A stretch of DNA of 25,456 nucleotides from a virus: IMG/VR virus record IMGVR_UViG_3300010371_000106, positions 1 through 25,456 of that record; one strand, written 5' to 3'. Of this stretch, positions 13,429 through 24,039 are shown one piece after another; the stretch's first letter is position 1; each line of letters begins with the position of its first letter. The notes under the pieces are model-generated. The model ran no database searches and was not told the origin of the DNA. It saw only the letters and a list, made by a program, of their open reading frames with translations. The translations under genes were made by a program, and so were the position numbers.

Positions 13429-14094
13429 ATGGCCGTTGCTGGAATGCCAATCTCCGCGCGCAACGGAAGACTCCGCGCGGACGAGCTGGCGCGCGTCCGC
13501 ACAGGGCAGCCGCTCGGCATTGCGTGCGCTCTGTCCTATGCGCGGCTAGACCACGCAATGCGCGTAGCGGGTCAGGGCGCATTGACGCTCACGGCTGGAC
13601 TCTCCGGATATCGGACGCTCGCTGAGCAGCAGCACCTACGCAATATCGGACTCACGACAATTGCAGTAGGTCGCTCCGTCCACGGAGAAGGACTCGCCGC
13701 AGATTTCCAGCAGTTGGGCGGAATGAACGGCACGCGCTATCGCTGGCTTGTGAATCACGGGCGCGCGTTCGGATGGTTCCACCCGTCCTGGGCCACGCCC
13801 GGTTCCCCGCATCATTGGGAATACAACATTGCGCTAGACAGGCATCGCACACAAACCCCTGCGCCGCCTCCTGAGCCTGAGCCGCCCGCTGAGTCCGGCT
13901 TTCCGTGGTTCATTCGTCGCAGCGACGGACTCATTGTGATTGTGTCGCGAGCTGGCGGCGTGCGCGGACTCAGCGCTGCCGCGTGGGCGACATACGGGAA
14001 TCTGGGCATGGCCGGATTTGAGCCAGGTTTCAGCAACATGGACCCAGGACCGTTCGCAGAAGTGATTGCATCGCTCGGCGGGATGCGTGGCTAA
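13429..14094 (+). CDS. M15-type D,D/L,D-peptidase endolysin with shared C-terminal domain
   Basis: The 221-residue product fits the peptidase M15 (VanY-like) family, zinc enzymes that cut stem peptides in peptidoglycan. The metal motif SVHGEGLAADF (S83, H85, D92) and the second His region PHHWEY (H128-H129) are visible, with SGYRTLAEQQHL before them. A linker of Pro and Glu (about 144-156) leads to the same ~62-residue domain as in the upstream lysin: about 38 of 62 aligned positions are identical by eye. It starts four bases after the upstream stop and its stop overlaps the holin ATG as TAATG. Confidence 0.88.
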   Translation: MAVAGMPISARNGRLRADELARVRTGQPLGIACALSYARLDHAMRVAGQGALTLTAGLSGYRTLAEQQHLRNIGLTTIAVGRSVHGEGLAADFQQLGGMNGTRYRWLVNHGRAFGWFHPSWATPGSPHHWEYNIALDRHRTQTPAPPPEPEPPAESGFPWFIRRSDGLIVIVSRAGGVRGLSAAAWATYGNLGMAGFEPGFSNMDPGPFAEVIASLGGMRG

Positions 14095-14357
14095 TGTTCA
14101 AAGACAGAAGCGTTGTGGGCGTCGTCATCATTCTGTTTGCGCTCACAACGTGTCTCGTCCTGCTGCTGACCGGCGCAGCAGTCGCAATCATCGCCGTGTT
14201 TCAGATTGACGTTCCAGCGGCGCAGACGGGCGCAACAACGTCGTTCCTGCGTCACAGCGTGGACCTCATCCTGGCTGGACTGCTCGGGCTGCTCGCTGGC
14301 TCCGGGCGCGGCTGGAAGAGCGACGAGCAGCCCAGCGCGCTGCCGCCCGCTGCGTGA
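14094..14357 (+). CDS. Holin
   Basis: The 87-residue product has two hydrophobic segments: about 8-37 (VVGVVIILFALTTCLVLLLT onward) and about 55-69 (SVDLILAGLLGLLAG). A charged, Pro-rich tail follows (GRGWKSDEQPSALPP). Small size, two membrane segments and position right after the lysins fit a holin that opens the membrane to lysin at the end of infection. The stop TGA is also part of the first TGACTAG repeat. Confidence 0.8.
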   Translation: MFKDRSVVGVVIILFALTTCLVLLLTGAAVAIIAVFQIDVPAAQTGATTSFLRHSVDLILAGLLGLLAGSGRGWKSDEQPSALPPAA

Positions 14358-14564
14358 CTAGAGCGTGACTAGAACCGCTCTCTGGTCCTAGTCATCTGAC
14401 TAGCGGACGCGTGCGCCACGCTCAGCGCGAGCGCGTCTCGTGCGCTGTAATGCACCGTCTTGTCCGGATTTGAGCGTGCGCGCAGGCATCCAGAAGATGA
14501 GAGCGACGCTGTAAAGGTGCACGTCAGAGCGCTGCGATTGACCGGTGACTAGCAGATTGACTAG
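14355..14564 (+). repeat. TGACTAG heptamer array (5 direct, 1 inverted)
   Basis: TGACTAG occurs on the + strand at 14355, 14366, 14397, 14546 and 14558, and its complement CTAGTCA at 14388. Two pairs are 11-12 bases apart, about one helix turn, and the copy pair at 14388/14397 forms the palindrome CTAGTCATCTGACTAG. I did not find this heptamer elsewhere in the window. The array looks like binding sites for a regulator, or arm-type sites for the integrase encoded downstream. Confidence 0.75.
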
Positions 14565-14614
14565 ATTCTCTTTCGCACGAGTACTCCAAACAACGCGAGA
14601 GAGCAGGAACGAAC
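14358..14614 (+). promoter_or_regulatory. Non-coding gap between late genes and the integrase operon
   Basis: No convincing gene lies in these 257 bases. The left end and the right end hold TGACTAG copies; the middle (about 14404-14537) is G+C-rich with two GCTGTAA copies followed by partly similar sequence (near 14444 and 14509). A promoter near the right end drives the downstream operon, and a terminator for the late transcript may be here but no clear hairpin plus U-run was seen. Confidence 0.6.
14538..14567 (+). promoter_or_regulatory. Candidate promoter for the integrase operon, overlapped by TGACTAG sites
   Basis: TTGACC (14538-14543) and TAGATT (14562-14567) are separated by 18 bases, close to the sigma-70 pattern (5 of 6 and 4 of 6 matches). 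One TGACTAG copy lies in the spacer and another overlaps the -10 box, which is where a repressor would block polymerase. The next gene starts at 14615 with an AGGAAC ribosome site. Confidence 0.5.
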
Positions 14615-15163
14615 ATGGCTAGGAACACGCGCAAGAGCACGCAGGAAGAGCCGAGCTGGACGGAGCCGACGCCGCTGCTGGACGAGGGGACGCTCTACCT
14701 CGCGCACGACCGTTACGTCTGCGGACGGATGGAGTGCTGCGGGGTGACGGCGCTCTACACGCGTCAGACGCTCGGCGGCGCTCCGGTGCTGGACGTGACT
14801 CCGGAGGAGGTCGCTGCGTGGCAGACGCTCCACGACGGAGCGCCGCTCGTCTGCCAGTGCGGCAAGGTCGTTGCGACGTTCGAGGCGCTGCGTCCGCTCG
14901 CAGAGATTGAGCGCGACGCTGAGAGCGCTGGGCTCATGAAGAAGAAGCGCGCTCCGCGTGCGCGGAAGGCTCCGACGCTGACGCTCGTCCCTGCTCCTGT
15001 GAGCGCTCCGGAGACGACGGACGCACGCGAGGAGCGGAAGCCCGAGAAGAGCGCTCAGCGACGCGGCCTGACGTGTCAGTGGGTCGCCTGCGACAAGCGC
15101 GCGACGAGCGTTCGCGCGCTCGCCGGGCAGAAGTGGTCTGTCTGCTCGGAGCACTCCGCATGA
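14615..15163 (+). CDS. Hypothetical Cys-rich (zinc-binding?) protein
   Basis: The 182-residue product is first in the integrase operon. It has two Cys clusters: CGRMECCG near residues 36-43 with CQCG near 80-83, and a C-terminal CQWVACDK with WSVCSEHSA (C-x5-C ... C-x2-H). These could bind zinc. Between them lies a basic, Pro/Ala-rich linker (KKKRAPRARKAPTLTLVPAP). I do not recognise a family. Its stop overlaps the next ATG by ATGA, and that gene overlaps the integrase likewise, so the three are one unit. Confidence 0.7.
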   Translation: MARNTRKSTQEEPSWTEPTPLLDEGTLYLAHDRYVCGRMECCGVTALYTRQTLGGAPVLDVTPEEVAAWQTLHDGAPLVCQCGKVVATFEALRPLAEIERDAESAGLMKKKRAPRARKAPTLTLVPAPVSAPETTDAREERKPEKSAQRRGLTCQWVACDKRATSVRALAGQKWSVCSEHSA

Positions 15164-15324
15164 GCGCGCACATTCCGACGACGGAGACGACGCGCGGCGA
15201 AACGAACGGAGCGTGCTCCTGCGGGTGGAGCATGAACTACGCGTATTCCGGCGACATTCCGTGGAGAGAACAGCAGGCAATGAAGGACGCACAGCAGCAC
15301 GCAGACAAGGAGAACGCGCGATGA
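15160..15324 (+). CDS. Small hypothetical protein with CxC motif
   Basis: This 54-residue protein has ATGA overlaps with the genes on both sides and GGAG before its start. The sequence contains GACSCGWSMNY, an IPWREQQAMKDAQQHADKE helix and ends ENAR. Similar short proteins with a CSCGW motif and a His-containing helix are common beside regulatory genes of actinophages; the motif looks like half of a zinc site. Its function is unknown. Confidence 0.7.
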   Translation: MSAHIPTTETTRGETNGACSCGWSMNYAYSGDIPWREQQAMKDAQQHADKENAR

Positions 15325-16448
15325 AGATTGCAGAAGAGGCACGCATTGACGGCAGCACGCGCTTTCGTGTGCAGCACAAGGACCCGGTAAAGCCGGGTCG
15401 CTACACGACGCGTCGCTTTGACGAGAAGCGCGACGCAGCAGAATTCGTGCGACGCGCAAAGTTGGAACTGTCCGCAGCAATTGCGTGGGACGAAGAGCGA
15501 CGCGGCGGCGTCACTTTCCGTGGACAGGCAGGACGCACGTTCATTGACTACGCAACGGATTACGTCAATGCGCAGACGGACGTTAAGCAGGGCACGCGTG
15601 AAGCAGGACACGCGCAATTGCGCATCATTGCTCAGATTGATTCGTTCGCTCACTTGCAGATGGGCGCAATTACGCGAACGGATTTGGAGACGTTGAAGAC
15701 GAGCCTTTCCGCTCTTCCGTCGCGTCGTGGCGAGTCGCTGAAATCGCGCACAAAGAACGGATTGCTCCGCACCGTCTTTGCCGTCATTCGTCACGCAGCA
15801 GCAGTGAACGACATTCCGCGCGACGTGACTTTCCGGGTGAAGAAGTTCCGCGTTGACGACGCAAAGGAAACGTGCCCCATCACGGTTCCGGAATTCGACT
15901 CCATCCTTATTCACGTCAAGCCTGAGCGGCGCGCAATTTTCCGCTTGCTGCTGGACTCCGGTCTGCGAATCTCGGAAGCACTCGCGATGCAGTGGCGCGA
16001 CATTAGCGAGACGAGCCAGGGCATCTATCAGATTGCCGTTTGGCCGACGGACTCGCAGCGGGGAAAGACTGACAAGGCGCAGCGAATCACGACCATTCCT
16101 GCGGACACATTCAAACTGCTGACGCGCGACGACGAGACGCACGTTTTCACCGCGACGTATTACGCGCTCTCGAACGAATGGCGAAACGCTGTGCAGCGCG
16201 CACAGTCCGGGTTGCACGCGACGGAATTCCCGGTGCTGACGAAGACGCCCAGCATTCACGACCTGCGACACACGCACGCGGGCTTCCTGATTACGGAATG
16301 CGGAATGAACCTCGCGCTCGTCGCTGAGCGTCTGGGTCACTCTGACATTTCCGTGACGCAGAAGTATTACGGGCGTTTGGTCACGGAGCAGGCACACGAC
16401 CTCGGCGTGCAGATTGCACGCAGCATTCCGCGCGGCGTCGTGGAGTAA
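15321..16448 (+). CDS. int: Tyrosine-type site-specific integrase
   Basis: The 375-residue product integrates the phage into the host chromosome. It has an N-terminal arm-binding domain (HKDPVKPGRYTTRRFDEKRDA, residues 19-39), a core-binding helical region (about 70-180) and a catalytic domain with R216 in SGLRISEAL, HDLRHTHA with H313 and R316, LGHSDISVTQ with H340, and the nucleophile Y349 in QKYYGR. K252 could be the beta-hairpin lysine. The start at ATG 15321 is preferred over the longer frame from 15213 because AAGGAG precedes it and it overlaps the previous stop as ATGA. The length is normal and all key residues are present, so it should be active. Confidence 0.95.
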   Translation: MKIAEEARIDGSTRFRVQHKDPVKPGRYTTRRFDEKRDAAEFVRRAKLELSAAIAWDEERRGGVTFRGQAGRTFIDYATDYVNAQTDVKQGTREAGHAQLRIIAQIDSFAHLQMGAITRTDLETLKTSLSALPSRRGESLKSRTKNGLLRTVFAVIRHAAAVNDIPRDVTFRVKKFRVDDAKETCPITVPEFDSILIHVKPERRAIFRLLLDSGLRISEALAMQWRDISETSQGIYQIAVWPTDSQRGKTDKAQRITTIPADTFKLLTRDDETHVFTATYYALSNEWRNAVQRAQSGLHATEFPVLTKTPSIHDLRHTHAGFLITECGMNLALVAERLGHSDISVTQKYYGRLVTEQAHDLGVQIARSIPRGVVE

Positions 16449-18055: not shown

Positions 18056-18262
18056 TCACTGCCTCCCGTTGTGGTGGTGCTCCGCAATGTACCGCTCCAC
18101 GCTCTCTGTGACTACGCGCAACATGCCGCGTACCTCCGTCGCGTCTAGCTCGCTCGCGTCGACCATGCGGCGGACTGTCCAGCGCGAGACGCCGAGCATC
18201 CGGCCTGCCTCCTTCATGGACACGTGTTCCGCGCGTCTCGCGGCTGCGTTGTCGCTGGTCAC
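18056..18262 (-). CDS. HTH DNA-binding protein (MerR/excisionase-like fold)
   Basis: The 68-residue protein starts at GTG with GGAGGG upstream. Its centre reads VSMKEAGRMLGVSRWTVRRMVDASELDATEV, a helix-turn-helix with wing of the MerR/Xis type, ending in a C-terminal helix (ESVERYIAEHHH). It is the first gene of the leftward operon and faces the rightward operon across the control region, where a phage repressor usually lies. It may act with the Lsr2-like protein whose gene begins two bases after its stop. Confidence 0.8.
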   Translation of the reverse strand: MTSDNAAARRAEHVSMKEAGRMLGVSRWTVRRMVDASELDATEVRGMLRVVTESVERYIAEHHHNGRQ

Positions 18263-18385
18263 AAGCGCTTTCCCTCCGCGTGTCGGGCCCCGTCACCCGT
18301 TCGAGTGAGTCAATCAGTACCACCCCGACACGTGTTGCGCAAGGGCTCTGCTCCGGAGATGTGACGACGCTCCCTGCGCGTTGTG

Positions 18386-18410
18386 ACTGTCGGACAAATG
18401 TCCAGACAGT
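18386..18410. repeat. Operator-like dyad
   Basis: ACTGTC and GACAGT flank an inner palindrome GGACA-AA-TGTCC; the outer arms are offset by one base. The layout suits a dimeric repressor site inside the divergent control region. Confidence 0.55.
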
Positions 18411-18413
18411 TGC

Positions 18414-18437
18414 CTCGGGGTGTGGCCACACCCGGAG
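18414..18437. repeat. 24-bp near-perfect palindrome
   Basis: The core GGGTGTGGCCACACCC is perfectly symmetrical, and the symmetry continues after one mismatch with CTC/GAG. It lies just before an AGGAGG motif. It could be an operator or, in RNA, a hairpin that hides the ribosome site. Confidence 0.6.
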
Positions 18438-18453
18438 CAGGAGGTAGCAACGC

Positions 18454-18684
18454 GTGCAATGGCGAGCAGCGCGTTGTTCGTGGTGCACAACAAAGCAGCG
18501 CGTAGCCCACGTGTCGTTTAGTGCCGTGCGGCGCAGAAAGAACCGGCGTGTAATTCGTGTTCTGCTCTTGCGTGACTACCGACGACGGTGGTTGCGTCGG
18601 AGACACAACAAAACACGAGCACGGAAGGAGCAATGTGGCGGCAGAAGAGCCGCAGACGCTCACAGTCGCAGATATCGCGAATGA
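18454..18684 (+). CDS. Doubtful Arg-rich ORF behind a strong ribosome site
   Basis: GTG 18454 lies nine bases after AGGAGG, one of the best ribosome sites in the region, and its frame runs 76 codons, overlapping the downstream HTH gene by 50 bases. The product is about one-third Arg (RRRKNRRVIRVLLLRDYRRR), which is typical of a non-coding frame in G+C-rich DNA. A 20-codon frame from ATG 18459 to 18521 (MASSALFVVHNKAARSPRVV) is an alternative leader peptide. I keep the entry because of the ribosome site alone. Confidence 0.25.
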   Translation: MQWRAARCSWCTTKQRVAHVSFSAVRRRKNRRVIRVLLLRDYRRRWLRRRHNKTRARKEQCGGRRAADAHSRRYRE

Positions 18685-18841
18685 CCTCCGAATCTCGCAG
18701 CGAACAGTAATGCTCATGGCGCAATCGCAGGAATTGCCCATGTTTAAGGTTCGCAATCGGTGGCGCATTAGTCGCACTACTTATCTCGAATGGAGAGATA
18801 GGGAAGAGCAGCGATATCGACCCGGAAGGCGCAGAAGGTGA
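18635..18841 (+). CDS. Excisionase/Cro-like HTH protein
   Basis: The 68-residue protein starts at GTG 18635 after GGAAGGAG; a longer frame begins at 18557 without a ribosome site. It reads LTVADIANDLRISQRTVMLMAQSQELPMFKV then NRWRISRTTYLEWRDREE, the standard winged-helix excisionase/MerR N-terminal fold, and ends in a basic tail (RPGRRRR). As the first gene of the rightward operon it could be the excisionase partner of the integrase or a Cro-like regulator. It overlaps the next gene by GTGA. Confidence 0.8.
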   Translation: MAAEEPQTLTVADIANDLRISQRTVMLMAQSQELPMFKVRNRWRISRTTYLEWRDREEQRYRPGRRRR

Positions 18842-22228: not shown

Positions 22229-22380
22229 AGTTCCGTGAGGTTCGCTCCTATGAATGTGCGACGAGCCAGCACAGCGCTTGTGACGGCTCGGAATGCGGCT
22301 GCTCCTGTCACCCGCTCTACCCACATTGGGACGATGATGATTACTGGGAGGAAGTAGAGCCGCCCGATGCAGACGAATGA
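22225..22380 (+). CDS. Small Cys-rich protein
   Basis: A 51-codon frame starts at GTG 22225, overlapping the RusA stop (GTGA), and ends inside the start of the methyltransferase gene. The product has ECATSQHSACDGSECGCSCH with five Cys and two His in a short run, and a very acidic C-terminal part (HWDDDDYWEEVEPPDADE). The Cys/His cluster suggests a zinc knuckle. The function is unknown. Overlap on both sides supports expression. Confidence 0.6.
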   Translation: MKFREVRSYECATSQHSACDGSECGCSCHPLYPHWDDDDYWEEVEPPDADE

Positions 22381-23353
22381 CGTTTACGAAGAATTCGCCG
22401 GACCCGGAGGCTGGGACGAAGGATTAGCACTCCTCAACAGCAGCGCTCACATAGTCGCAGGCGTGGACATTTCCAATGACGCGTGCACAACAGCAACAAC
22501 GGCAGGGCACAAGCGTTTGTGCGCGGACGTGCGCTCAATCGATCTGGACGAGCTGGGGCGCAACATTGGAGGTCACATCTCGTCGCCGCCGTGCCAGACG
22601 TTCTCTCAGATGGGCAACGGACGCGGGCGCGCGTCATTGAGCGCGCTTGCTGACGCAGCCGCCGTCGTGCTCCACGGTGCGAACACAGACGAAGCATTAG
22701 AGCGTTACGGGCTGGACGAGCGCTCAGCACTGGTTCTGCGTCCGCTCGTCGTCGCCAGAGCGCTTAAACCGCAATGGATAGCACTAGAGCAAGTGCCGCA
22801 CGTGCAAGCGCTCTGGAACGTCTACGCCGTGCTCCTGCGCAGCGTCGGATATCGCGTCGCAACAGGACAGGTGCACGCGGAGCAATTCGGCGTTCCGCAG
22901 ACACGCAAACGCGCTGTGCTCCTCGCACACGCAACGCACAGCGTGTCACTACCGCAGCCGACGCATTCCGCTTACTACTGGCGTTCCCCGGACAAGCGCG
23001 ACCCGTGGGTTAAGCCGTGGCTCAGCATGGGCGACGCATTAGGGCCTAGCTGGACGCCCACATTTCGCGACCAAAGCGGCACGACATATGACCCGGAATG
23101 GCCGTGGAAACGTCCAGCAACAGCAATCGCAGGGCGCGGGCTCGTCCAGAATCCGGGTGAAACAGCAAACCGCTTTAACAGCAGCACGAAGTCACGCAAT
23201 GACGGTGTGCGAATCAGCGTGGAGGAAGCGGCAGTGCTGCAATCATTCCGACGCGACTACCCGTTTGCAGGCTCGCAATCGTCACAGTTCCAGCAAGTGG
23301 GCGACGCAATTCCTCCGCTCCTCGCGGCAGCACTCCTCCGTCAAGTCATCTAA
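22367..23353 (+). CDS. DNA (cytosine-5) methyltransferase
   Basis: The 328-residue enzyme transfers a methyl group to C5 of cytosine. Conserved motifs in order: I EEFAGPGGWDEGL (8-20), IV SSPPCQTFS with catalytic C76 (72-80), VI ALEQVPH with E141 (usual ENV is EQV here), VIII QTRKRAVLL (178-186), a short target recognition region around 200-280 with RPATAIAGRG, IX ISVEEAAVLQSF (283-294) and X QVGDAIPPLLAAALL (310-324). No restriction partner is visible, so it is probably an orphan enzyme that protects phage DNA. The stop overlaps the start of the Mom-like gene. Confidence 0.93.
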   Translation: MQTNDVYEEFAGPGGWDEGLALLNSSAHIVAGVDISNDACTTATTAGHKRLCADVRSIDLDELGRNIGGHISSPPCQTFSQMGNGRGRASLSALADAAAVVLHGANTDEALERYGLDERSALVLRPLVVARALKPQWIALEQVPHVQALWNVYAVLLRSVGYRVATGQVHAEQFGVPQTRKRAVLLAHATHSVSLPQPTHSAYYWRSPDKRDPWVKPWLSMGDALGPSWTPTFRDQSGTTYDPEWPWKRPATAIAGRGLVQNPGETANRFNSSTKSRNDGVRISVEEAAVLQSFRRDYPFAGSQSSQFQQVGDAIPPLLAAALLRQVI

Positions 23354-24039
23354 TGCGCTGGGAGCATCGTTCGCTCTTCGACGTAGAGGACGAGACGCAG
23401 ATTGCACATGTTCGCGACCTCACAACAGCGCACGTCTCGTCAAAGGATATGGAGGAATTCGCGGCGCGCTATCACTACACAGGGCTACCCGGAAACGCGA
23501 GCTGGCGATGGGGCCTGTGGCACGAAATGACACTCTACGGAGTCGTTGCCTACAACCTTCCGACAATGACGCTCTGCGAGTCCATCTTTGGAAAGGAGCA
23601 CTGGTCGCACGTCTGGCACATGAGCCGACTAGCGCTAGCGGAGATTGCGCCGCACAACAGCGAGAGCCGTCTCATCGGAGGCTCACTCCGAGCGATAGAG
23701 AAGGAGTTTCCGCACGTCTGGGCAGTGCTGACATACGCAGCACAGGACGCAGGACACATCGGCTACGTCTACCAGGCAACAAACGCGATTTACACGGGCA
23801 CAGGCGGACAGGCGTATTACTACATCGACCAGAAAGGACACATGCGCCCGACGTATGACGGGCGTTTCATCGGACCGACAGAAGCGGAGTCGCGCGGCTG
23901 GACTGTGCACAAGAGTCTTCCGAAACATCGGTACGTCTACATTCTCGGCAACAAGAAACAGCGACGTGAGCGGCGCGAGCTGCTGCGACTGGACGAATAC
24001 CCCTACCCAAAGCCGGATGACGCGCATGGGCGTATATAA
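23353..24039 (+). CDS. Mom-like DNA modification enzyme
   Basis: The 228-residue protein resembles the Mom family of GNAT-fold DNA modification enzymes. Mu Mom converts adenine to N6-(carbamoylmethyl)adenine and so blocks many restriction enzymes. Family-like segments are FAARYHYTGLPG (36-47), LYGVVAYNLP, HMSRLALAEIAPHNSESRLIGG (89-110), the AAQDAGHIGYVYQATNAIYTG core (129-149) and KHRYVYILG (191-199). The C-terminus is basic. Its place right after a C5 methyltransferase supports an anti-restriction role. The exact chemistry cannot be told from sequence. Confidence 0.75.
   Translation: MRWEHRSLFDVEDETQIAHVRDLTTAHVSSKDMEEFAARYHYTGLPGNASWRWGLWHEMTLYGVVAYNLPTMTLCESIFGKEHWSHVWHMSRLALAEIAPHNSESRLIGGSLRAIEKEFPHVWAVLTYAAQDAGHIGYVYQATNAIYTGTGGQAYYYIDQKGHMRPTYDGRFIGPTEAESRGWTVHKSLPKHRYVYILGNKKQRRERRELLRLDEYPYPKPDDAHGRI

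What the first reader, a model, noticed from the sequence alone, without database searches (positions are those of the whole stretch)
14355..14567. TGACTAG array overlapping a promoter for the integrase operon
Five direct and one inverted copy of one heptamer lie in 210 bases, in pairs about one helix turn apart. Two sit within a TTGACC-N18-TAGATT promoter. This looks like an operator array for a phage regulator, or arm-type integrase sites placed so that integrase controls its own expression. I did not find it elsewhere in the window, so it is specific to this junction.
Basis: partly seen in the sequence, partly recalled or inferred. Interest (0 to 1): 0.6.

Follow-up and report, generated by a model that had tools for sequence, protein, structure and literature searches.

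The report
Phage integration site with integrase promoter
The repeated seven-letter word is almost certainly the set of docking sites for the phage's own integrase at its integration site, with the outer pair lying across the integrase promoter; it is a well-formed example of a known arrangement, not something new.

Summary
TGACTAG occurs six times in the 25-kb contig, all in 14355-14564 (five direct, one inverted; about one expected in the whole contig). The best reading is the attP site of this temperate phage. Two direct pairs (spacings 11 and 12 bp, inner sites 180 bp apart) flank the centre of a noncoding gap just upstream of a three-gene operon ending in a tyrosine integrase. That geometry nearly equals mycobacteriophages Adephagia (11/182/12), CrimD (11/186/12) and Tweety (12/176/12). 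In CrimD and Adephagia these repeats are published as putative integrase arm-type sites, and Adephagia's int-attP segment integrates in vivo. Only 1 of 300 simulated contigs gave such a double pair. A promoter-like TTGACC-18-TAGATT, one of two such matches in the contig, has one heptamer in its spacer and one overlapping its -10, as in the negatively autoregulated KplE1 intS promoter. Not shown: binding, promoter activity, and the crossover core or attB (searched for, not found). An inverted pair at 14388/14397 has no assigned role. New member of a known kind; low interest.

The parts
14355..14361 (+). heptamer 1 (left arm, direct pair with heptamer 2); overlaps the stop codon of the upstream ORF
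   Evidence: exact match
14366..14372 (+). heptamer 2 (left arm), 11 bp from heptamer 1
   Evidence: exact match; double-pair test
14388..14394 (-). heptamer 3, inverted, role unassigned; Adephagia has a comparable inverted extra copy beside its left pair
   Evidence: Adephagia copy
14397..14403 (+). heptamer 4, forms an inverted pair with heptamer 3, role unassigned
14404..14545 (.). interval expected to hold the attP crossover core; by spacing analogy with Adephagia/CrimD near 14477-14498 (Tweety-like spacing would put it further left)
   Evidence: inference from core positions; no attB match, no RNA-gene match
14538..14567 (+). promoter-like TTGACC-18-TAGATT
   Evidence: activity untested
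14546..14552 (+). heptamer 5 (right arm), in the promoter spacer
14558..14564 (+). heptamer 6 (right arm), 12 bp from heptamer 5, overlaps three bases of the -10 hexamer
14615..15163 (+). 182-aa ORF with Cys pairs, first gene of the operon, no known family
15160..15324 (+). 54-aa ORF, overlaps its neighbours by ATGA, no known family
15321..16448 (+). tyrosine integrase with R216, K249, H313, R316, H340, Y350 and an N-terminal domain alignable to CrimD Int
18056..18262 (-). 68-aa HTH_17 protein, candidate excisionase/RDF
   Evidence: phrog_66 excisionase and transcriptional regulator, E 5.5e-7; PF12728
18557..18841 (+). 94-aa HTH_17 protein, second candidate excisionase/regulator
   Evidence: phrog_66 E 5.8e-7; PF12728

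Best explanation
The array is the set of arm-type integrase-binding sites of this phage's attP. The left sites (14355/14366, with extras at 14388/14397) and the right pair (14546/14558) flank a crossover core somewhere in 14404-14545. The N-terminal domain of the integrase (15321-16448) would bind the heptamers while its catalytic domain recombines the core with a chromosomal attB. Because the right pair covers the spacer and -10 of the one promoter-like site ahead of the operon 14615-16448, integrase bound there would shut off its own synthesis. The promoter lies on the int side of the core, so it stays linked to int after integration. Shown: sequence, geometry, gene order, integrase identity and conserved residues. 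Inferred: binding, repression, core position.
For: Exactly one double-pair word in the window, 1 of 300 simulated contigs. Same layout in phages with published or annotated integration regions: Adephagia 11/182/12, CrimD 11/186/12, Tweety 12/176/12, Pixie, Giles, with the tmRNA core between the pairs in Adephagia and CrimD and arm-site interpretation in PMC3203893. Window 11/180/12. Adjacent intact tyrosine integrase, N-terminus similar to CrimD's and predicted as three strands plus a helix, pLDDT 82. Heptamers overlap the promoter as in KplE1 intS (PMC2951348).
Against: No attB or core identified and no tRNA or tmRNA fragment between the pairs. No relative with the same array. Five other actinophages with similar integrases gave no double pair. 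The fold comparison of the N-terminal domain is inconclusive. The left side has four sites, two of them an inverted pair, which the simple layout does not explain.
Confidence: 0.85

Rival explanations
1. The heptamers are binding sites of an excisionase/RDF (candidates: the HTH_17 proteins at 18056-18262 and 18557-18841), an Apl- or Xis-like protein that binds direct repeats one helix turn apart at att and may repress the int promoter.
For: RDF operators are direct repeats 10-11 bp apart at att and can repress int (PMC7498355); two phrog_66 excisionase-like proteins are encoded.
Against: The sites stand in pairs on both sides of the central interval with the inner spacing seen for arm sites, and there is an inverted copy; no heptamer lies in the early control region 18263-18556, unlike Apl.
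Confidence: 0.08
2. The array is an operator set for a repressor or other phage regulator that controls the integrase operon, unconnected with recombination.
For: Two heptamers overlap the promoter; 14388/14397 form a short dyad.
Against: Four of six sites are direct half-sites in pairs; the left four lie 130 bp or more upstream of the promoter; none is at the early promoters; the geometry matches attP regions.
Confidence: 0.05
3. The left part is a transcription terminator hairpin behind the lysis genes and the repeats are incidental to it.
For: 14366-14394 forms an 11-bp imperfect inverted repeat; minus-strand fold z -2.6.
Against: No T-run and no terminator match on the array; plus-strand z only -1.7; does not explain the right pair.
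Confidence: 0.02

Closest known systems
attP of cluster K1 mycobacteriophages CrimD and Adephagia (PMC3203893)
   Same: Two pairs of short repeats, 11 and 12 bp apart within pairs, inner sites 182-186 bp apart (180 here), just 5' of a tyrosine integrase gene; an extra inverted copy beside the left pair in Adephagia
   Different: There the right pair is inverted relative to the left; here it is direct. There a tmRNA core is recognisable; here no core was found. Here two small ORFs separate the site from int, and the repeat word differs
attP of mycobacteriophages Tweety, Pixie and Giles
   Same: Direct-orientation pairs flanking the core region (Tweety 12/176/12; Pixie has an extra inverted site)
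   Different: Different repeat words; tRNA-like core present in Tweety and Pixie
intS promoter/attL of prophage KplE1 (PMC2951348)
   Same: Integrase arm sites overlap the -10 region of the integrase promoter
   Different: Repression by integrase and TorI was measured there; here it is only predicted. KplE1 sits in a tRNA gene
Apl sites of phage 186 (PMC7498355)
   Same: Direct repeats about one helix turn apart at att
   Different: Apl sites also occur at the early promoters; the heptamer does not

Membership tests
attP with arm-type sites for a tyrosine integrase | Adjacent tyrosine integrase with catalytic residues | tested here: met
   PF00589 E 3.5e-16, phrog_1 E 1.6e-41; R216 K249 H313 R316 H340 Y350 aligned
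attP with arm-type sites for a tyrosine integrase | Paired short repeats about one helix turn apart on both sides of a central interval | tested here: met
   11/180/12 layout, unique in window, 1 of 300 simulations; matches control phages
attP with arm-type sites for a tyrosine integrase | Integrase has an N-terminal arm-binding domain | tested here: inconclusive
   Similar to CrimD N-terminus, 35% over 52 aa; predicted three strands plus helix; fold search without a significant match, AP2 domain 1gcc Z 4.9 tied with others
attP with arm-type sites for a tyrosine integrase | Core sequence shared with a chromosomal attB | tested here: inconclusive
   395 Acidimicrobiia genomes gave only weak scattered GC-rich matches; host unknown; no RNA-gene fragment
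attP with arm-type sites for a tyrosine integrase | Integrase binds the repeats | not testable with these tools
   needs gel shift or footprint
Negatively autoregulated int promoter (KplE1 type) | Arm sites overlap the int promoter | tested here: met
   By sequence only: heptamer 5 in the spacer, heptamer 6 over the -10; promoter activity untested
Negatively autoregulated int promoter (KplE1 type) | Integrase represses the promoter | not testable with these tools
   needs a reporter assay
Dual RDF/regulator operators (186 Apl type) | Direct repeats one helix turn apart at att | tested here: met
   pairs 11 and 12 bp apart
Dual RDF/regulator operators (186 Apl type) | Same sites also at the early control promoters | tested here: not met
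   No exact heptamer outside 14355-14564; one-mismatch copies at chance level

The most novel reading that the evidence does not exclude
Integrase bound at the attP right arm controls not only itself but an operon whose first two products (182-aa Cys-rich and 54-aa proteins, no known family) are new accessory factors of recombination, and the inverted heptamer pair at 14388/14397 is a separate regulatory module.
Probability: 0.12. Interest if true: 0.4.

Novelty: new member of a known kind. Interest (0 to 1): 0.2.

Why it matters
It places the probable integration site of a phage group with almost no sequenced relatives and predicts the word its integrase recognises, so integration and autoregulation become directly testable. 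It also extends the actinophage attP geometry to a phage whose only capsid relatives found in bacterial genome assemblies are in Acidimicrobiia. It does not change general understanding.

Tried and rejected
Relatives by integrase or by the 182-aa protein in IMG/VR: none. Scan with the C-terminal integrase segment: four distant integrases, no double pair near them. Array patterns in IMG/VR: four unrelated hits, namely a tandem 11-bp repeat (L002), palindromic TGACTAGTCA sites (L003) and repetitive, probably coding, stretches (L081, L082). Capsid relatives L004-L012: fragments with no detectable integrase; Acidimicrobiia L013/L014: no integrase match in the fetched prophage-like loci. attB search in 395 Acidimicrobiia genomes: GC-rich noise, matches in mostly unrelated places. 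Rfam on the region: nothing. Whole-integrase single-sequence model: low confidence beyond residue 47 (pLDDT 39). Foldseek with the N-terminal domain: no significant match; integrase structures did not appear in the list, which excludes nothing. Raw 7-mer density as a statistic: rejected, inflated by GC-rich repetitive words. The double-pair detector also fires on periodic repeats far from int in Pixie and Tweety, so it needs gene context.

Full report
What is there. The window is a 25,456-bp linear viral contig. It carries terminase, portal, protease, capsid, tail and lysis genes, then a 257-bp gap, then a rightward operon of a 182-aa Cys-rich ORF, a 54-aa ORF and a tyrosine integrase joined by ATGA overlaps, followed by leftward and rightward HTH genes. 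TGACTAG occurs six times, all in 14355-14564; the expected number for the whole contig is 1.05. The conserved block is exactly seven bases.

Is it more than chance? A raw count of a 7-mer in about 215 bp is a poor statistic in this GC-rich DNA. A layout test is better: the same word in two same-orientation pairs 9-14 bp apart, the pairs 60-350 bp apart. The window has exactly one such case, this one, and 1 of 300 order-2 Markov contigs has any. The detector was written after seeing the array, so this figure is a guide rather than a formal probability; the controls below are the stronger evidence.

What it is. The same test, with mismatches allowed for CrimD and Tweety, finds equivalent pairs in actinophage integration regions. 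Spacings (pair / inner-to-inner / pair) are Adephagia 11/182/12, CrimD 11/186/12, Tweety 12/176/12, Pixie 12/211/13, Giles 12/209/12; the window is 11/180/12. In Adephagia and CrimD the tmRNA core sequence lies between the pairs, and in Tweety and Pixie a tRNA T-arm-like sequence does. PMC3203893 interprets such repeats in the cluster K phages as putative arm-type sites, cites the same for Giles and L5, and reports that an Adephagia int-attP plasmid integrates in vivo. Adephagia also has an inverted extra copy beside the left pair, resembling the 14388 copy here. Morkie, Pickett, Footloose, LilSpotty and TreyKay gave no double pair. PMC3203893 notes that arm sites differ even between close relatives, so the lack of an identical array in IMG/VR is not surprising.

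The integrase. It has R216, K249, H313, R316, H340 and Y350. Its N-terminus aligns with that of CrimD (35% over 52 aa) and is predicted as three strands and a helix with mean pLDDT 82. The AP2 domain 1gcc is among the best structural matches, but Z is only 4.9 and tied with unrelated chains, so the fold assignment is inconclusive.

How it would work. Integrase binds the heptamers with its N-terminal domain and the core with its catalytic domain. The right pair lies over the spacer and -10 of TTGACC-18-TAGATT, one of two promoter-like matches in the contig. Occupancy should block transcription of the operon, as shown for KplE1 intS, where arm site P'1 overlaps the -10 box (PMC2951348). PMC3706429 raised integrase self-regulation for cluster J phages from arm-like sites at the int start. 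The promoter is on the int side of the core, so it stays with int after integration. Binding, repression and the core are inferred.

Open points. No attB or core was found; by analogy the core would be near 14477-14498. The host is uncertain: the two genome-scan capsid relatives are in Acidimicrobiia assemblies (43% and 40% identity), and these could be phage contigs binned with a bacterium. The RDF rival (PMC7498355) is kept at low probability because the sites flank the centre on both sides and are absent from the early control region.

Verdict.

Noticed in passing
23353-24039 (+) and 22367-23353 (+): A Mom-family DNA modification protein (PF25680, E 2e-30) follows a C5 cytosine methylase (PF00145); the phage may modify its DNA in two ways.
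   Followed up: partly
L003 6641-8779 (IMGVR_UViG_3300037722_000284): An unrelated 59-kb viral contig carries 15 TGACTAG words, many as the palindrome TGACTAGTCA; they could be repressor operators.
   Followed up: no
14615-15163 (+): A 182-aa ORF with several Cys pairs and no detectable relative is the first gene of the integrase operon.
   Followed up: partly
14009-14023 and 14461-14475: A 15-bp near repeat (14 of 15 identical) is shared by the end of a lysis gene and the putative attP centre; probably chance.
   Followed up: no
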